Below, in pieces: positions 307 through 7,635 of a stretch of DNA of 64,000 nt. A program made the position numbers and the translations under genes. The first letter of the stretch is position 1. Every line of letters begins with the position of its first letter. The notes under the pieces were generated by a model. That model saw only the letters and a program-made list of their open reading frames with translations, searched no databases and was not told the DNA's origin. The DNA is from Saccharothrix deserti (GTDB lineage: Bacteria > Actinomycetota > Actinomycetes > Mycobacteriales > Pseudonocardiaceae). The stretch is taken from positions 287,109 to 351,108 of the forward strand of contig NZ_ML775961.1 in NCBI RefSeq assembly GCF_009769385.1, in the 5' to 3' direction.

Positions 307-1722
307 TCAGTCTTCGCGGCCGAGTTGGACGTGCTCCAGCACGCCGATGGCGTCCGGTACGAGGACCGCGGCGGAGTAGTACGTGCTGACGAGGTAGGAG
401 ATGATGCCCTTTTCGCTGACGCCCATGGTCCGCACCGACAGGCCCGGCTGGTACTCGTCGGGGATGCCGGTCTGGTGCAGGCCGATGACGCCCTGGTTCT
501 GCTCGCCGGCGCGCAGCAGCAGGATCGAGCTGGTGCGGTTGTCGCTGATCTCCAGCTTGTTGCACGGCAGCAGCGGAACACCGCGCCACGCGGGCACGTG
601 GTGGCCGTTCAGGTCCACTGTGGACGGGTAGACGCCGCGTTTGGTGCATTCCTTGCCGAACGTCGCGATCACCCGCGGGTGGGCCAGGAACGCGGTCGGC
701 TCCTTCCACACGGTGGCCAGCAGGTCGTCCATGTCGTCCGGCGTCGGCGCGCCGTTGCGGGTGTGGATGCGCTGCTTGAGGTCCGCGGCGTGCAGCAGCC
801 CGAACGAGCGGTTGTTCACCATCTCGTGCTCCTGGCGTTCGCGCAGGGCCTCGATGGTCAGCCGCAACTGCTCCTCGGTCTGGTTCATGGGGTTGTTGTA
901 GAGGTCCGCGACCCGGCTGTGCACCCGCAGGACCGTCTGCGCGACGCTGAGTTCCAGTTCGCGCGGCGTGAGCTCGTAGTCCACGAAGGTCGCCGGCAGG
1001 TCCGGCTCGCCGTCGTGGCCCGAGGCGATGTCGATCTCGGCCTCGCCGTGCGCGTTCTGCCGCCGATCGCCGACGTTGAAGGCGCGCTGGATGTGCGCGC
1101 GCAGGGCGCCCGCCTCGCCGTTGAGCTGCTCGAAGTCCTGCCACGACAGCACCAGCGCGGTGACCGGCGTGACGGCCTTGGCGGTGAAGTCCCACTCGTC
1201 CTGCGGCCCGGCGAGCACCTTGTCGCCGAAGTAGTCGCCGTCGGCCAGGACGCCGAGCACGGTCTTGTCGCCGTACTCGCCCGTGCCGATCTTGTCGACC
1301 TTGCCGTGCGCGACCAGGAACAGTTCGTTCTGCGGACGACCGCGTTCGACGATGACGTCGCCCGGGCCGTACTCGCGCTGCTGGAAGCAGCGCGCCAACG
1401 CGGACAGCGCCTCCACGTCGTCGAATCCCCGCAGCAGGGGCAGTTCGCAGAGCTCCTGCGGCACCACGTCGATGTCCGCGCCGATGTTGGTGAACGTCAG
1501 TCGGCCGTCGCCGATCGCGTAGCTGAGCCTGCGGTTGACCCGGTAGGCGCCGCCTTTGGCCTCCACCCAGGGCAGGACCTTCAGCAGCCACCGGGAGGTG
1601 ATGTTCTGCATCTGCGGCACGGACTTGGTCGTCGTCGCCAGGTTCCGGGCCGCGGCTGTGCTGAGGCTCAGCCGGTTTTGTTCGCTCTCCACGTCGGGGG
1701 TGGGTGAATCGGTCACAGTCAC
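307..1722 (-). CDS. Family 2B encapsulin shell protein with cyclic-nucleotide-binding domain
   Basis: Shell protein of a HK97-fold protein nanocompartment. The N-terminal arm contains [17 protein letters not shown] and [16 protein letters not shown], a hallmark of Family 2 encapsulins. A cyclic-nucleotide-binding-like domain is inserted at about residues 92-205 ([23 protein letters not shown]), which defines subfamily 2B; the shell fold resumes after it. Known 2B systems package terpene cyclases such as 2-methylisoborneol synthase and other isoprenoid enzymes. Here the gene is divergent from a flavoenzyme/terpene cyclase/P450 operon, which fits an isoprenoid role. The chosen start is GTG at 1722, giving MTVTDSPT as in relatives; TTG at 1737 would add five residues. 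Length is 471 aa, normal for the family. Confidence 0.9.
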
Positions 1723-2351
1723 CGCGTGCACCGCCAATCCATTTTTTGTTGACCGGATCGACTCGACCGTAGTCAGCGGAAAAGGAAGGGGGAAGTATCC
1801 GATACGGCGACCTCCCTCCGGGTTAACGGCGACCTCCCTCCGGGTTGTCTGTCGGTGCGGTGTGCGCGCGCTGTGTGACTGGAACGCGGAGGTGGCCGTC
1901 TTCGGGGAAGTTGGTGGTTTTACCGGTGTCGTTCACCTGGCCGTGGAGTTGACCGGTGGCGGGGTGTGGATTTATCGCCCGCCGGGGTCGGCGATGGGCC
2001 TTGACGTGCCGCAGGGTGACCAAATCCGCACATGTGCGGAGAGTGGTTCCTTCGTATGAGTTCATTCCGACGGTCGAACCGGCGATTTTTCGGCAGGTAA
2101 ATCTACCGGCACTCCGGAACGTGTCCACACCACAGTGCGGGGAATCACGAACGTGAATCGTCAGCGGATCGACGTCGATTTGCGTGATACCTGGTCGAGG
2201 GACTGCCCGGTGTCGACGGCGGTGTTAGTTTCCGAGAGGCGATCGGGGTCACGCCCGTCGCGACGCGAATGCACCGCTGTCCACCGCACCTTTCCCGGTG
2301 CGGATCCGGTGCCGCGTCTCGCCCGGAAAGCGGCACATGGAGGTTGATCCG
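1723..2351. other. Divergent intergenic region between encapsulin and terpene operon
   Basis: About 630 bases without a convincing gene. It must hold the promoters of both the encapsulin gene (leftward) and the flavoenzyme operon (rightward). The left part is less GC-rich than its surroundings and contains a 20-bp tandem direct repeat, listed separately. Short open frames here have no recognisable domain or ribosome-binding site. Confidence 0.6.
1805..1846. repeat. Two tandem copies of a 20-bp direct repeat
   Basis: The unit CGGCGACCTCCCTCCGGGTT occurs at 1805-1824 and again at 1827-1846, separated by AA, so the period is 22 bp (two helical turns). It lies about 85-125 bp upstream of the encapsulin start. 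Two identical sites on the same helix face suggest binding of a regulator to direct repeats; that function is inferred. Confidence 0.7.
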
Positions 2352-4052
2352 GTGGTCACCCCGTTCCTCGACGAGGGTCGGCATACGTACGGCTTCCCGG
2401 TCGGATCGCAGCAGCACGGCGCCGCGCCGCCTGGGTTCCCCGGCGGCGTCCCGGTGCGCCGGCAGCGCTACCGCAACTGGCTGGACCAGATCCACGTCGA
2501 CGACGTGTGGGTGTGCACCCCGCGCTCCGCCGCCGACGTGGTCGCGGTCGCCAACTGGGCGCGATCGCGCGGGTACCGGGTGCGGGCCAGCGGGCACAGC
2601 CACACCGCCTCACCGCTCGTGCTGACCGACCGGCAGCCGGACGCGGACCGCGTCGTCCTCGCCGACACCAGGGAACACCTGACCGGGATGAGCGTGGAAG
2701 CCGGCGCGGCGCCGGGAATCCGGGTTGGCACCGGTGTGTCGCTGCGGGAGTTGGCCGAGTTCGCGGAGCGCCACGGGTTCGGGTTGCCGCTGATGCCCTT
2801 GTGCGGCGAACTGACCGTGGGCGGCGTGCTCGCCGTGGGCGGCCACGGCACCGGCGCGTCCACCGCTCCCACCGCTCCCACCGCGCCCGGCGCGGCGGAC
2901 GGCGGATCCGGGTCGCTGAGCGACCTCGTCGCCGCCCTGACCGCCGTGGTGTGGGACAAGCCCTCCGGCGAGTACGTGCTGCGCACCTTCCACCGCTCGG
3001 ACCCCGACACGGCGGCCTTCCTGACCCACCTCGGCCGGGCGTTCATCACCGAGGTGACGCTGTCCGTCGTTCCCGACTACCCCCTGCGGTGCGTCAGCGA
3101 GGTGACCATCCCCGCCGGCGAGCTGCTCGCCGCGCCGGAGAAGGTCTCGTCCCGGTCGCTGGCGGCCCTGGTCGACCGCTGCGGGCGGGTCGACGTGGTG
3201 TGGTTCCCCCAGTCCGAGCGGACGTGGGTGCGGACGTTCGAGGTGGAACCCGAGCGCCCGCCCGAGTCGCGCCCGGTCGTCGAGCCGTACAACTTCCCGT
3301 TCACCGACCACGTCCCGGAGTCCGTTTCCCGCGCGGTGTCGCTCGTCGTCAGCGACGACCCCCGGCACACCGCCGAGCTGGGCGAGGTCCAGTACGCGGC
3401 GACCGTGGCGGGCCTGGCCGCGTCCGCCTCGGCCGACCTGTGGGGCCTGTCGAAGAACCTGCTGCTGTCCGCCAAGCCCAACATCCTGCGGTACGCCTGG
3501 AACGGGTACGCGATCCTCACCAGCCGCGACCTGCTCCAGCGGGTCGTCCACGAGTACGGCACGTTCTTCCGCGAGCTGGTCGACACCTACCGGAACCAGG
3601 ACAGGTACCCGGTGAACGGACCGGTCCAGCTGCGGATCACCGGTCTGGACCGCCCGCGCGTCACCGACGCCGGAGAGGTCCAGCCGCCTGCGCTCTCGCC
3701 GGTCAGGGCCGACCCGGAGAACCCGCACTGGGACGTTGCGGTCTGGGCGAACGTGCTCAGCTTCCCCGGGACGGAGCACGCCGAGAGCTTCTACCGGGAC
3801 TTCGAGGAGTTCGTCTTCGGCAACTACCGCGCGCCGTACGCCTGCGCGCGGCCCGAGTGGGCCAAGGGGTGGGCCTACACCGCCGAGTCCGCGTGGTCGG
3901 ACCCGACCGTGCTGAGCGGCACGGTGCCCGCCGCGTTCGGCGACTCGTGGGACTGGGCGGTCTCCCGGCTGCACGCACACGACCCGCACCGGGTCTTCGG
4001 CAACCCGTTCCTGGATCGCCTGCTGGTCGCGGAAACCGGAGGGGCAGCATGA
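2352..4052 (+). CDS. VAO-family FAD oxidase, cholesterol-oxidase type II-like
   Basis: 566-aa flavin-dependent oxidase of the vanillyl-alcohol-oxidase fold. An N-terminal PCMH FAD-binding domain (DDVWVCTPRSAADVV, RVRASGHSHTASPL, GGVLAVGGHGTG) precedes a cholesterol-oxidase substrate domain (YNFPFTDHVPE, NPHWDVAVWANVLSFPGT, RPEWAKGWAYT). The second His of SGHSH (H84) aligns with the His that binds FAD covalently in Brevibacterium type II cholesterol oxidase. From remembered alignment, the active-site Glu of that enzyme's Glu-x-Arg pair is Gln here (Q426, R428), while the other catalytic Glu (E289) is kept. The start is GTG at 2352 because GGAGGT lies 7 bases upstream; ATG at 2337 is the alternative. 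Its stop overlaps the next start (ATGA). The substrate is probably a terpenoid alcohol made by the operon rather than cholesterol (inference). Confidence 0.85.
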   Translation: MVTPFLDEGRHTYGFPVGSQQHGAAPPGFPGGVPVRRQRYRNWLDQIHVDDVWVCTPRSAADVVAVANWARSRGYRVRASGHSHTASPLVLTDRQPDADRVVLADTREHLTGMSVEAGAAPGIRVGTGVSLRELAEFAERHGFGLPLMPLCGELTVGGVLAVGGHGTGASTAPTAPTAPGAADGGSGSLSDLVAALTAVVWDKPSGEYVLRTFHRSDPDTAAFLTHLGRAFITEVTLSVVPDYPLRCVSEVTIPAGELLAAPEKVSSRSLAALVDRCGRVDVVWFPQSERTWVRTFEVEPERPPESRPVVEPYNFPFTDHVPESVSRAVSLVVSDDPRHTAELGEVQYAATVAGLAASASADLWGLSKNLLLSAKPNILRYAWNGYAILTSRDLLQRVVHEYGTFFRELVDTYRNQDRYPVNGPVQLRITGLDRPRVTDAGEVQPPALSPVRADPENPHWDVAVWANVLSFPGTEHAESFYRDFEEFVFGNYRAPYACARPEWAKGWAYTAESAWSDPTVLSGTVPAAFGDSWDWAVSRLHAHDPHRVFGNPFLDRLLVAETGGAA

Positions 4053-6322
4053 ACATCGCGGTACTCGACGTGGACGGCACGCTGCTGCCAGGGGCGTTGG
4101 CCGATCCGCTGCCCGCCATGCTGCTCGACGCCGGGCTCTCGCCCCGCGACCGCGGGGTCCGGTTGCGGGAGCTCCTGGCCACCGGCGAGCCGGAGACGCC
4201 GCCGCGGCCGGGTGCGTTCAACGAGTTGTTCGCGGCGATGCTCACCGACGTGCCGCGCCGCCCGGTGTCCGCGCTCATGGCCGAGCTCTGGCTGGTGCAG
4301 CGCGAGCGGCTGTTCGACTTCACGCGCCCGCTGGTCGCGGCGGTCCGGGAGGCCGGGTTCACGCCGATGCTGATCTCCGGCGGACCCGAGGAGATGGTCG
4401 CGCACCTGGCGGCGGAGTTGGGGGTCGACCGGTTCCGCGGCACCCGCTTCGCCGTCGAGGACGACCTGTACACCGGTGAGGTCGAGTCCACCGTGGAGGG
4501 CGCGAAGGACAAGGTGGCGCTGGAACTGGCCGCCGGCGCGGTCGTCGCCTGGTCGCGGTCGCTGGCGATCGGCAACTCGCTCGGCGACGTCGAGGTGTTC
4601 AAGCAGGTCGGGCACCGGATCGCGTTCGAGCCCACACCGGGGCTGCTCGCCGTGGCCCGGGAGAACCGGTGGCACCTGGCCGACCGCACCGACCTGCCCG
4701 ACGTGCTGCGCGACCGCGTGGGCATCACCCTGGTCCGGCGCCCGAGCCTGCCGCCGCCCTCAGGGGTCCCCGCGCCGCAGCGGTGGGACCTGCGGGACGC
4801 GGCAGAGCGGCTGACCACCCGCATCCTCGCTGAGGTCACCCCCTCGGGCGCGGTGGTGGGGCACAACGACAGCCGGGTCACCGAGTCCGCGCTCATGCTC
4901 ACGCTGCTGCGCCGCGAGAACCTGCTGCCCGCCGCGCAACGCGGGCTGCGGGCCTACCTCGCAGGTCGGGCGCCGACCGCCGACGCGTTCGACACCGCCG
5001 TCATCAACTCCGCCCTCTACGGCATCCCCGTCCCCGACCGGGAACGGCTCATCGACCAGACCTTCGAGGGGGCCGCCCAGCACTCGTCGGCGCGCAAGAG
5101 GCTCGCGCTGGCCGCGATCCTGGCGGTGGTCGGCTCGGAACCGTTCCACGTGGACGCGCCGTCGGACGCGTTCCGCCACCGGGGCGAGGCGACCTGGACG
5201 CGGTTGCGGATGATGGCGATCCACCACCTCAACTCCGCCGAGCCCGTGGCGCCGGAGCTGACAGCGCGGTTGTTGCGGCTGACCGAGACGGGCCAGCGGC
5301 GCGGGATCGGGGTCATCGAGCGGCAGACGTTCTCCCACCTGTTCGCCCTGCTGGCGCTCAACCGGGTGTTGCCAGGGCACCCGGTGATCCGCGAGGGGGT
5401 GACCGCGTTGGCCGCCCACCTGAAGCCGGACGGCGGCCTCGCGCTCAACGTCAGCGAGGAGGTCTTCGCCACCGCGACCGCCGGCCTGGCGCTGGCCCGC
5501 GCGGGAGTCGACCGGTCCACCCTGATCGCGATGGCCGACTACACCGCCGCGCAGCAGGCCGAGGACGGCGGTTGGCCCTTCGCGCCGGACGTGGTCCAGA
5601 CCGACCTCGACACCGCGACCCACGCCATGGCGTTCCTGCACGTCGTCGACCCCGCCCGGTACCGGACGCACGTCGCCGGAGGACTGCGGTACCTGCGTCA
5701 CATGGCCCGGTCGGACGGCGGCTTCCCGACCTACCTCGCCGGCCAGCCCGCCGAGGCCACGATGACCGCCAACGCGGTGATGGCCCTCGTCCCCCATGCC
5801 CGCGAACACCACCAGCTGATGGAGCGCGCGGCCGGTTTCATCGTGCGGTCCCAACGGTCCGACGGCACGTTCGAGCGGAGCTGGAGCCTCAGCGAGGCCA
5901 ACGCCATCTTCCGCGTCCTGATCGCGTTGCGCGCGGTGTACCACCGCAACCCCGCGGTCAACCAGGGCAGGCTGGCGCCCGCCATGCTGGCGGCCGAACG
6001 GCGGGTGCTGACCACGGCCAACCCCGACGGCGGCTGGGGGCAGACACCGGGCGAGCCCAGCGACCCGGTCAGCACCGCGTACAGCCTGATGGCCCTCGCC
6101 TGGAACCACCGCGACAGCGAGGTCGTCCGCGACGGCATCCGCTACCTGCTGTCCCGGCAGGACCCGGACGGCGGCTACACCTCGGTCTCCGACCAGGCCG
6201 CGCCCCGCCCGCTGCGGTACGGCGTCCCGATCCTGGTGAACAACTACGTGCTGCTCGCCATGACCTACCTGGACCCGGGCTTCCGGTACGCCGGTCACGG
6301 CCTCGGGAAGCACACGCCATGA
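4049..6322 (+). CDS. HAD phosphatase-class II terpene cyclase fusion (drimenol synthase-like)
   Basis: 757-aa bifunctional terpene enzyme. Residues 1 to about 230 are a complete HAD phosphatase: DVDGT (D7, D9), S110, K153 and GNSLGD (D180). Residues from about 260 to the end are an alpha-barrel squalene/oxidosqualene-cyclase-like domain with repeated DGGW/DGG motifs. The class II acid motif is D519-L-D521-T522-A, matching the DxDTT/DxDTA motif of bacterial HAD-fused cyclases that convert farnesyl diphosphate to drimenyl diphosphate and then dephosphorylate it to drimenol. The class I DDxxD motif is absent. Predicted action: protonation-initiated cyclisation of a prenyl diphosphate followed by phosphate removal, in the cytosol. 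ATGA overlaps at both ends couple it to the flavoenzyme and the P450. Product chain length cannot be read from sequence. Confidence 0.88.
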   Translation: MNIAVLDVDGTLLPGALADPLPAMLLDAGLSPRDRGVRLRELLATGEPETPPRPGAFNELFAAMLTDVPRRPVSALMAELWLVQRERLFDFTRPLVAAVREAGFTPMLISGGPEEMVAHLAAELGVDRFRGTRFAVEDDLYTGEVESTVEGAKDKVALELAAGAVVAWSRSLAIGNSLGDVEVFKQVGHRIAFEPTPGLLAVARENRWHLADRTDLPDVLRDRVGITLVRRPSLPPPSGVPAPQRWDLRDAAERLTTRILAEVTPSGAVVGHNDSRVTESALMLTLLRRENLLPAAQRGLRAYLAGRAPTADAFDTAVINSALYGIPVPDRERLIDQTFEGAAQHSSARKRLALAAILAVVGSEPFHVDAPSDAFRHRGEATWTRLRMMAIHHLNSAEPVAPELTARLLRLTETGQRRGIGVIERQTFSHLFALLALNRVLPGHPVIREGVTALAAHLKPDGGLALNVSEEVFATATAGLALARAGVDRSTLIAMADYTAAQQAEDGGWPFAPDVVQTDLDTATHAMAFLHVVDPARYRTHVAGGLRYLRHMARSDGGFPTYLAGQPAEATMTANAVMALVPHAREHHQLMERAAGFIVRSQRSDGTFERSWSLSEANAIFRVLIALRAVYHRNPAVNQGRLAPAMLAAERRVLTTANPDGGWGQTPGEPSDPVSTAYSLMALAWNHRDSEVVRDGIRYLLSRQDPDGGYTSVSDQAAPRPLRYGVPILVNNYVLLAMTYLDPGFRYAGHGLGKHTP

Positions 6323-7635
6323 TCGAATGTGGAACGTCGAGCGATGTCGGCGCCGCCTTCGACCCCCGCAACGCCCACCGGGACGACCCGTTCCCGTTCC
6401 TGCGGGAGGCGCGGTCCGCGGAGCCGGTGTTCTACGCGGAGTCGCTGCGCGCCTGGTGCGTGACCCGGCACGACGACATCACCGCGGTGCTGCGCGACCA
6501 CGGGTCCTTCTCGGTCCGCGAGCACAACCCCAGCCCCACGACGGCGTTGCCCCCGGAGGTCGAGCAGGCCTTGGGGGAGTGGCGCGGCGAGGCGCTGCCG
6601 CTGGGGTCGCTCGACTCACCGGAGCACACCAGGATCCGTGCGGTGGTGAACACCGGCTTCACCCGCACGGCGCTGAAGGCCTCCGAACCCAGGATCCGGG
6701 CCACCGCCCGCAGCATGGCCCGCAGGCTCGCCCGGGAACCCGGGTTCGAGTTCATCAGCGAGTTCTCCAAGCCCTACGCGCTCATGGTCATCCTCGAGGT
6801 GCTGGGGATACCGGGGAGCTTCCACGCCCGGTTCGACACCTGGACCGACCAGCGGATCAAGATCATGACCGCGCACGAGGGCACCGACCCGGACGAGCTG
6901 CGCGAGTGCGCGCGCGGACTGCTGGAGTACGGCCGGTTCGCCCGGGAGCTCGTGGCCGAGCGCCTGGCCCGGCCGCGCGACGACCTGATCAGCCGCATGC
7001 TGCACGAATGCCCGCACGGCCACCGCCTGTCGGTGGACGAGACGATCGCGCAGATACCCACGCTGATCACCGCGGGGTACCGGACGGCGGCCGAGACCCT
7101 GGCCACCGTCGTGTGGAACCAGGCCCGCACGGCGGGTGGGTGGGCCGTCGTCGTCTCGGGCGACGTCCCGTTGGAGGACCTCGTCGAGGAAGGGCTCCGG
7201 TTCGACTGCCCGATCGCCGGCATGTACCGCACCGCCCTGCGGGACGTCGAGATCGGCGGCGTGCGGATCCCGGCCGGCGGCAGGGTGCTGCTGGTGTACG
7301 GGTCGGCCAACCGCGACGAGACCAAGTACGCCTGTCCCGAGCAGTTCCGGCCGGGTCGCGTGAGCACCACGCACCACCTGGCCTTCGGGCTCGGCGAGCA
7401 CTTCTGCATCGGGGCTCCGCTGGGGCGCACGATGCTCCGGATCGCCCTCGAGGAGCTCGCCGCGGCGATGCCCGGCCTCACCCTGGCCGACCGCGCGGAA
7501 CCGACCTACCAGCCGACGTTCCCGTTCCGCGTGCGGTCCGCGCTGCCGGTGCTGACCACCGCGCCCGGGGCGGACGGGGCGGACGGGGCCGCGACGCCGT
7601 GCGCCGGTACCGCCCCCGGGTCTGTTCGGGGGTGA
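6319..7635 (+). CDS. Cytochrome P450 with C-terminal disordered tail
   Basis: 438-aa bacterial class I P450. The haem loop is FGLGEHFCIG with C363 as thiolate ligand, and the ExxR pair is E291-R294. The I-helix reads AGYRTAAET: the acid normally next to the conserved Thr256 is Arg255, so proton delivery may be unusual. The last 25 or so residues (from about 413) are Ala/Gly/Pro/Asp rich and look disordered. The start overlaps the cyclase stop (ATGA). The gene ends the terpene operon and probably oxidises the cyclase product; no ferredoxin or reductase gene is nearby. Confidence 0.88.
   Translation: MIECGTSSDVGAAFDPRNAHRDDPFPFLREARSAEPVFYAESLRAWCVTRHDDITAVLRDHGSFSVREHNPSPTTALPPEVEQALGEWRGEALPLGSLDSPEHTRIRAVVNTGFTRTALKASEPRIRATARSMARRLAREPGFEFISEFSKPYALMVILEVLGIPGSFHARFDTWTDQRIKIMTAHEGTDPDELRECARGLLEYGRFARELVAERLARPRDDLISRMLHECPHGHRLSVDETIAQIPTLITAGYRTAAETLATVVWNQARTAGGWAVVVSGDVPLEDLVEEGLRFDCPIAGMYRTALRDVEIGGVRIPAGGRVLLVYGSANRDETKYACPEQFRPGRVSTTHHLAFGLGEHFCIGAPLGRTMLRIALEELAAAMPGLTLADRAEPTYQPTFPFRVRSALPVLTTAPGADGADGAATPCAGTAPGSVRG

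What the first reader, a model, noticed from the sequence alone, without database searches (positions are those of the whole stretch)
307..7635. Family 2B encapsulin divergent from a HAD-terpene cyclase/P450/flavoenzyme operon
The shell gene (307-1722) faces an operon for a HAD-class II cyclase fusion, a P450 and a VAO oxidase. Known 2B shells package 2-methylisoborneol synthase-type cyclases or isoprenoid-linked enzymes. A drimenol-synthase-like fusion plus oxidases would be a different, possibly undescribed cargo set: a compartment that makes and oxidises a sesquiterpene. None of the operon enzymes has a long N-terminal disordered extension like known 2B cargo; the P450 C-terminal tail is the only obvious candidate for loading.
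Basis: partly seen in the sequence, partly recalled or inferred. Interest (0 to 1): 0.8.

Follow-up and report, generated by a model that had tools for sequence, protein, structure and literature searches.

The report
Protein shell beside drimane-type terpenoid operon
An actinobacterium carries the gene for a virus-like protein shell back to back with genes for a terpene cyclase and two oxidising enzymes; a second species has the same four genes, and the shell would likely house at least one of those enzymes, most likely the flavin oxidase.

Summary
The genes are as described: a Family 2B encapsulin shell (307-1722, -) divergent from a coupled operon of VAO oxidase (2337-4052), HAD-class II cyclase (4049-6322) and P450 (6319-7635). 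The pairing is not unique. Of 25 genomes of the genus, two carry the operon; in both, an extra 2B shell, beyond the pair found in all 25, sits directly divergent from it, with unrelated flanks. The P450 tail proposed for loading is not conserved. Better candidates: the VAO's closest relative in the protein search carries N-terminal TGLGTSAAR, the published putative 2B cargo motif, and three further close VAOs carry variants; the second cyclase of S. syringae is 69% identical to a motif-bearing cyclase. Against: no protein of either operon has the motif, two Streptomyces HAD-cyclases have no shell, the S. syringae HAD-cyclase has lost its catalytic acid, and loading is untested. I read it as a new variant of the terpenoid 2B encapsulins, with the oxidase the likeliest cargo. 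The open library searched held no description of it.

The parts
307..1722 (-). Family 2B encapsulin shell protein (Enc1-type), 471 aa, with cNMP-binding-like insertion
   Evidence: NF041163 757.8 bits; PF19307 + PF00027; closest solved structure 9bje = S. lydicus Enc1; groups with Enc1 shells in the trees
1723..2336 (.). 614-base divergent intergenic region; shell-proximal leader partly resembles that of the genus' core Enc1 genes; a 14-base block at the shell start is shared with S. syringae
2337..4052 (+). VAO-type FAD oxidase related to type II cholesterol oxidases; no Tat-like signal, no cargo motif in this strain
   Evidence: PF01565 + PF09129; 3js8 E 3.9e-150, His89 aligned with a His of both solved enzymes; N-termini
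4049..6322 (+). HAD-IB phosphatase fused to a class II (TC-beta) terpene cyclase, 757 aa, drimenyl-diphosphate-synthase-like; acid motif DLDTA with the middle Asp kept
   Evidence: PF12710 + PF13243; SsDMS structures are the nine best Foldseek matches; AF2 pLDDT 87.9; motif
6319..7635 (+). cytochrome P450, 438 aa, with a C-terminal tail not seen in the three relatives compared
   Evidence: PF00067; tail comparison

Best explanation
The four genes form one linked unit, present in two species, in which a Family 2B encapsulin shell likely compartmentalises part of a terpenoid pathway whose predicted steps are FPP cyclisation and dephosphorylation to a drimenol-type alcohol by the HAD-cyclase, hydroxylation by the P450 and alcohol oxidation by the VAO flavoenzyme, with the VAO the likeliest cargo. 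Shown: the gene block, its recurrence with unrelated flanks, extra full-length shells beside the operon in both genomes of the genus sample that have it, and the 2B cargo motif on the closest VAO relative. Inferred: substrates and products, by homology to SsDMS and the HAD-TC-beta drimenol synthases; in S. syringae the cyclisation would fall to the second class II cyclase, because its HAD-cyclase has lost the catalytic Asp. Inferred: loading; in the window strain the VAO has no recognisable tag, so it would need a diverged signal, a partner, or mixed shells with the core Enc1/Enc2 pair and its polyprenyl synthase on contig C25. The advantage would be to feed prenyl diphosphate locally and to keep H2O2 and reactive aldehyde from the oxidase inside the shell.
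For: Same block in G021: shell 75%, VAO 63%, HAD-cyclase 67%, P450 66%, with Enc2', polyprenyl synthase, DXS and IspG on the shell arm. No other ORF of 120 aa or more from the window or the 18 kb upstream matches the 35 kb around it at E 1e-12, apart from a 29% P450-to-P450 match and antisense shadows. All 25 genus genomes have an adjacent shell pair (by coordinates); a HAD-cyclase with both halves occurs in 2 of 25 (a third hit, G003, covers only the cyclase half), and both have further full-length shells beside it. VAO tag: P0028, grouped with the window and S. syringae VAOs, has TATGLGTSAAR; P0031, P0032 and P0033 have GPTGPGTSAAR, GPTGLGTSAAR and RPTGLGTSAAQ. P0028 and HAD-cyclase P0007 are both listed from a JGI contig of 5861 bases. 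Motif specificity: 10 matches in 8 of 25 genomes, 0 for the reversed control, 9 of 10 in class I terpene synthase ORFs. Six VAO relatives are fused to a class I terpene synthase domain. Three of 80 class II cyclase ORFs carry the tag, one of them (L036) 69% identical to the second cyclase of the S. syringae cluster. Cyclase: SsDMS top fold match; D521 aligns with SsDMS D303.
Against: No protein of the window or S. syringae cluster carries the motif by a loose pattern, and the strict pattern has 0 matches in the whole window genome. Two Streptomyces genomes with 57-58% HAD-cyclases have no shell, VAO or P450 in the stretches read, and 0 of 80 more distant cyclase loci have a 2B shell in the DNA held: at most the shell follows the whole operon, not the cyclase. 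Only two genomes show shell and operon together. The S. syringae HAD-cyclase reads DAGDT where 22 of 23 aligned sequences, the window's included, keep the middle Asp, and GRGRS for ERSWS, so its cyclase half is probably inactive. Within the VAO tree the tag needs 3 changes for 4 carriers (shuffled mean 3.9, 31 of 500 as low), so it comes and goes. The trees do not join the two operon-linked shells; the data only fail to reject joining them (p 0.40). That P0028 and P0007 share one contig rests on equal contig lengths.
Confidence: 0.5

Rival explanations
1. The shell's cargo is the polyprenyl diphosphate synthase, as may hold for the genus' core locus; the cyclase, P450 and VAO work outside and merely use the prenyl diphosphate. 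In the window strain the solo Enc1-type shell would mix into the core Enc1/Enc2 shells.
For: Core Enc1-Enc2-polyprenyl synthase-MEP gene locus in the genus; S. syringae has a second polyprenyl synthase, DXS and IspG on the shell arm; polyprenyl synthases are a published putative 2B cargo class (passages) and mixed two-component shells are reported for S. lydicus (abstract and introduction).
Against: No polyprenyl synthase match in the window; the two synthases read lack the 50-100 residue disordered N-terminus reported for cargo synthases; does not explain the cargo motif on VAO relatives.
Confidence: 0.27
2. A cyclase is the cargo: the HAD-cyclase in the window strain, or in S. syringae the second class II cyclase, taking the place of the class I cyclases that sit beside other extra shells of the genus.
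For: Four other extra or fragmentary shells of the genus sit beside class I terpene synthases; 3 of 80 class II cyclase ORFs carry the cargo motif, including L036, 69% identical to the S. syringae second cyclase, which keeps an intact DVDDT motif; the HAD-cyclase has a low-confidence linker at 230-245.
Against: No tag-like match in the window HAD-cyclase or in any of its 22 aligned relatives; two shell-less Streptomyces relatives (L193, L194) are the same protein type; the second cyclase is absent from the window strain's locus.
Confidence: 0.2
3. The shell is a duplicated gene that happens to be a neighbour and has no role in the pathway.
For: Extra shells and shell fragments are found in 9 of 25 genus genomes, three of them without a cyclase that my three class I queries or the HAD-cyclase hit; HAD-cyclases occur without shells elsewhere; no tag in this strain.
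Against: Direct divergence from the same operon in both genomes that have it, with unrelated flanks; rough arithmetic of 2 shell loci x 2 sides in an assumed 9500 genes gives 4e-4 per genome by chance; cargo motif on the closest VAO relative.
Confidence: 0.15

Closest known systems
Family 2B encapsulins with terpene cyclase or polyprenyl synthase cargo (2-MIBS-like and geosmin-synthase-like; PMC8346489, passages read)
   Same: Shell family, actinobacterial host, terpenoid enzymes and (in S. syringae) MEP-pathway genes beside the shell, and the GPTGLGTSAAR-type motif (on relatives of the VAO and of the second cyclase)
   Different: Published 2B cyclases are sorted into 2-MIBS-like and GS-like; the paper's main text has no word beginning with oxidase, flavin, P450, squalene or drimenol and no 'class II'. 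Here the cyclase is class II fused to a phosphatase, with a VAO and a P450
Two-component 2B encapsulin of Streptomyces lydicus (PMC12407261; 9BJE/9BIX; abstract, introduction, section 2.1 and passages read)
   Same: Window shell is Enc1-like; S. syringae and the window strain's other locus have an Enc1-Enc2 pair
   Different: The window locus has one shell gene only
HAD-TC-beta drimenol synthases such as AsDMS (PMC9128629, PMC12365925; passages read)
   Same: HAD phosphatase fused to a class II cyclase with a flexible linker; acid motif with the middle Asp
   Different: Acid motif DLDTA; actinobacterial; in an operon with tailoring oxidases and beside a shell
cav cluster of S. clavuligerus (drimane sesquiterpenoids, PMC11035983; first of three parts read)
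   Same: Bacterial drimenyl diphosphate synthase with P450 tailoring
   Different: Nudix hydrolase instead of a HAD fusion; no VAO or shell match in the 25.5 kb examined
Type II cholesterol oxidases (3js8, 1i19)
   Same: FAD and substrate-binding domains; FAD-domain His aligned
   Different: No Tat-like signal; sits on the side of the family tree that holds the cargo-tagged and terpene-synthase-fused members. 'Type II' is a recalled label

Membership tests
Family 2B encapsulin | HK97/SrpI-type shell domain with inserted cNMP-binding-like domain | tested here: met
   NF041163 757.8 bits over cut-off 400; PF19307 and PF00027
Family 2B encapsulin | Assembly into shells | not testable with these tools
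   Homologous to solved 2B shells; no experiment
Family 2B encapsulin | Neighbouring cargo with GPTGLGTSAAR-type motif (seen in many, not required of all, 2B systems) | tested here: not met
   Not met in the window or S. syringae cluster; met in the closest VAO relative P0028
HAD-TC-beta drimenol synthase | HAD phosphatase domain fused to class II TC-beta domain | tested here: met
   PF12710 residues 4-184 and SQHop_cyclase_C 568-712; model matches SsDMS and SerB-type HAD folds
HAD-TC-beta drimenol synthase | DxDTT acid motif with catalytic middle Asp | tested here: inconclusive
   DLDTA at 519-523: middle Asp kept (22 of 23 aligned sequences), full DxDTT in 9 of 23, DxDTA in 2 of 23; D521 aligned with SsDMS D303
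HAD-TC-beta drimenol synthase | DDxxE metal motif of the HAD half (AsDMS 195-199) | tested here: inconclusive
   Window has GNSLGDVEV at 175-183; AsDMS itself was not aligned
HAD-TC-beta drimenol synthase | Makes drimenol from FPP | not testable with these tools
   Needs enzyme assay
Type II cholesterol-oxidase-like VAO flavoprotein | FAD_binding_4 + Chol_subst-bind, conserved FAD-domain His | tested here: met
   (His89 invariant in 10 of 10 aligned); that this His carries FAD covalently in 1i19 is recalled
Bacterial cytochrome P450 | P450 domain over the Pfam cut-off, heme-binding Cys motif | tested here: met
   77.1 bits over cut-off 22.8; FGLGEHFCIG read

The most novel reading that the evidence does not exclude
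A flavin oxidase is encapsulin cargo: Family 2B shells make a drimane factory in which the product of a class II cyclase is oxidised inside the shell, with the H2O2 and reactive aldehydes confined; class II cyclases and VAO oxidases are two cargo classes that have gone unrecognised.
Probability: 0.35. Interest if true: 0.8.

Novelty: new variant of a known kind. Interest (0 to 1): 0.6.

Why it matters
The 2B terpenoid encapsulins described in the papers read here are tied to class I cyclases or prenyl synthases, which only make scaffolds. A shell tied to a class II cyclase, a P450 and an oxidase would extend compartmentalisation to tailoring, and the motif-bearing VAO relatives give a direct, cheap test of whether a flavin oxidase is natural encapsulin cargo.

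Tried and rejected
P450 C-terminal tail as loading tag: rejected, absent from the S. syringae P450 and two Streptomyces P450s. Recent duplication of the window shell from its own core Enc1: marginally rejected (p 0.046), so not relied on. Shared promoter between window and S. syringae: only short blocks match; the 14-base block lies at the shell's translation start, so I do not claim co-regulation. A shell-HAD-cyclase link across actinobacteria: not found; 0 of 80 genome-contig loci (the best 80 of 294 relatives; several are short) and 0 of 2 Streptomyces contexts. Search for more close HAD-cyclases: 0 of 392 in one genus sample (query P0002), 1 of 394 in a family sample (query P0009), and 1 plasmid record with at least 80% coverage out of 24 with a match. 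In the class sample 2 of 394 genomes matched at 1e-90: the window's own and one cyclase-half hit. Motif-bearing VAO P0032 in 390 genomes of the family: 11 genomes matched, all of the genus; apart from the window operon's VAO, those whose N-terminus could be read were Tat-type. VAO AlphaFold model: pLDDT 59.6, not used. Motif hit L085 is inside a cyclase domain and was dropped as false; loose hits in P0089 and P0117 lie in Tat-like signals and were dropped. On checking I found that the S. syringae HAD-cyclase lacks the catalytic Asp; it is now told as evidence against. The same call also tied the second cyclase to a motif-bearing relative, so I left the odds as they were.
Full report
WHAT IS THERE. 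The window is contig C6 (287109-351108) of a 10.8-Mb genome. That naming is an inference from lengths. The shell gene 307-1722 (-) passes the NCBIfam 2B equivalog cut-off (757.8 against 400 bits) and has the inserted cNMP-binding-like domain. Facing it, 614 bases away, are a VAO-type oxidase, a HAD-class II cyclase and a P450 whose reading frames overlap by ATGA.

THE PAIRING RECURS. In G021 the same four proteins occur in the same arrangement: shell 75%, VAO 63%, HAD-cyclase 67%, P450 66% identity. There the cyclase arm goes on to a second class II cyclase without HAD, and the shell arm to a second shell, a polyprenyl synthase, DXS and IspG. No other ORF of 120 aa or more from the window or the 18 kb upstream has a match (E 1e-12) in the 35 kb around the G021 cluster, except a 29% P450-to-P450 match and antisense shadows of the four genes. 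So the shell travels with the operon. All 25 genus genomes of the sample (the window's included) have an adjacent shell pair (by coordinates), followed in the longer stretches read by polyprenyl synthase and MEP genes. Additional full-length shells occur in 5 of 25 genomes (G000, G021, G017, G019, G009) and fragments or partial matches in 4 more. The HAD-cyclase with both halves occurs in 2 of 25, and both are among those five. Of the other seven extra or fragmentary shells, four lie beside a class I terpene synthase and three beside none that my queries hit.

ORIGIN OF THE SHELL. The window shell is Enc1-type. Grouping it with the G021 operon-linked shell is not rejected (p 0.40); grouping it with its own genome's core Enc1 is marginally rejected (p 0.046); grouping the G021 operon-linked shell with its own core Enc1 is not rejected either (p 0.48). 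Whether there was one association or two is open.

THE ENZYMES. The HAD-cyclase model (pLDDT 87.9, 18 sequences) has SsDMS, drimenyl diphosphate synthase, as its nine best PDB matches, and SsDMS entries are also the best sequence matches. D521 aligns with SsDMS D303, the acid changed in the substrate-bound structures. Of the 23 aligned sequences 22 keep the middle Asp of the acid motif, 9 have DxDTT and 2, the window's among them, DxDTA; SsDMS has DVDD. The exception is S. syringae: DAGDT, with GRGRS where 20 sequences have ERSWS. As the corresponding D333N change abolishes cyclisation in AsDMS (PMC9128629, PMC12365925, passages), its cyclase half is probably inactive, and the neighbouring second cyclase, with an intact DVDDT, may have taken over. 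Substrate length (FPP or GGPP) is not settled. The VAO is closest to cholesterol oxidase 3js8, with the FAD-domain His aligned. Bacterial drimane chemistry with P450s is known from the cav cluster of S. clavuligerus (PMC11035983; first of three parts read).

THE LOADING SIGNAL. PMC8346489 (passages read) names GPTGLGTSAAR as a putative 2B targeting motif in terpene cyclases. In the genus a strict DNA pattern for TG[LF]GT-AAR matched 10 times in 8 of 25 genomes with 0 matches for the reversed control; 9 of the 10 lie in class I terpene synthase ORFs and the tenth, L171, does not (L172 was itself a query and rests on its Pfam match). Among 161 VAOs (the window's plus those listed, each a list of the best 120, less the duplicate entry P0027), four carry it in an N-terminal extension: P0028, P0031, P0032, P0033; six are fused to a class I terpene synthase domain; 132 have a Tat-like RR signal by a simple pattern; 19 have neither. 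In a quick tree of all 29 non-Tat VAOs and 30 randomly drawn of the 132 Tat ones, one side (SH-aLRT 100) holds the window VAO, all four tagged and all six fused ones and no Tat one; the window VAO, S. syringae VAO and tagged P0028 form a group (SH-aLRT 100). The tag label needs 3 changes on that tree for 4 carriers (shuffled mean 3.9, 31 of 500 as low), so by itself it is not strongly clustered. P0028 and HAD-cyclase P0007 (69%) are both listed from a JGI contig of 5861 bases, which points to a third copy of the operon with a tagged VAO; I could not read that contig. In the genus, a roughly 49% identical VAO paralogue occurs in 11 genomes; its Tat-like N-terminus was legible in six. The operon's VAO has no such signal and, in the window and in S. 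syringae, no motif either. The strict pattern has no match in the window genome, and two matches to a looser one lie in no plausible gene, with five control matches. Among class II cyclases, 3 of 80 ORFs carry the tag, and one of these, from Spongiactinospora (L036), is 69% identical to the second cyclase of S. syringae, whose own N-terminus has at best a degenerate form (SGLGGTAQA, read by eye).

LIMITS AND COUNTER-EVIDENCE. None of 80 more distant cyclase loci has a 2B shell in the DNA held. So the HAD-cyclase does not need a shell. Only two genomes show operon and shell together. Nothing here shows loading, products or co-expression.

VERDICT. The linked unit is well supported; that the shell compartmentalises part of the pathway is likely; that the VAO is the cargo is the best single guess. 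Literature: full-text searches of the open PMC library for encapsulin with class II terpene (0 papers), cholesterol oxidase (1, unrelated by title), GPTGLGT (1, the 2021 survey), cytochrome P450 plus terpenoid (2, unrelated by title), sesquiterpene (6, engineering or reviews by title), 2-methylisoborneol (2), Family 2B plus terpene cyclase (3), terpene plus prenyltransferase since 2022 (3) and drimenol/HAD/terpene (10 listed of 12, none of the 10 holding the word encapsulin) showed no description of this pairing; of these hits only PMC8346489 and PMC12407261 among the encapsulin papers were opened. Subscription papers and preprints are not in that library.

Noticed in passing
L028:9289-11532 (-) and L028:6493-7995 (-): S. 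syringae HAD-cyclase has DAGDT and GRGRS in place of the catalytic D-x-D and ERSWS motifs, while the second cyclase next to it keeps DVDDT: possible division of labour, HAD half for dephosphorylation only.
   Followed up: partly
L033:8009-11653, L102:5997-8696, L036:9503-12607: Class II (drimenyl-synthase-like) cyclases that carry the GPTGLGTSAAR-type motif; in L033 and L102 it lies between a class I terpene synthase domain and the class II domain. Whether their genomes have 2B shells was not checked.
   Followed up: partly
window 1626-1671 (shell N-terminus) and shells of the genus: The shell N-terminus ([22 protein letters not shown] in many shells) resembles the cargo motif GLGTSAAR; 29 of 34 distinct N-termini, preselected for [12 protein letters not shown] sequence, fit L[GS]T-x-[AGS]-AR. 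Could mean the tag mimics a shell segment.
   Followed up: partly
P0040, P0041, P0062, P0166, P0167, P0185: VAO oxidases fused to a class I terpene synthase domain (PF19086), one named Nannocystis.
   Followed up: partly
L156, L159, L162, L163: Extra or broken 2B shells of other genus members beside class I terpene synthases, three with the motif.
   Followed up: partly
L029:11316-17969, L161, L164, L165: Core Enc1-Enc2-polyprenyl synthase locus with MEP genes (IspH, DXS, IspG in varying completeness of the stretch read); the synthases of L028 and L029 lack the long disordered N-terminus reported for cargo synthases.
   Followed up: partly
L065, L087: Streptomyces loci where a P450 49-50% identical to the window's lies beside a 32-33% identical cyclase, without VAO or shell match.
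   Followed up: no
L031, L032: In two Nostoc records the HAD part lies downstream of the cyclase part, the reverse of the window's order.
   Followed up: no
window 1806-1846: A GGCGACCTCCCTCCGGGTT block is present twice, 22 bases apart, between shell and VAO (read).
   Followed up: no
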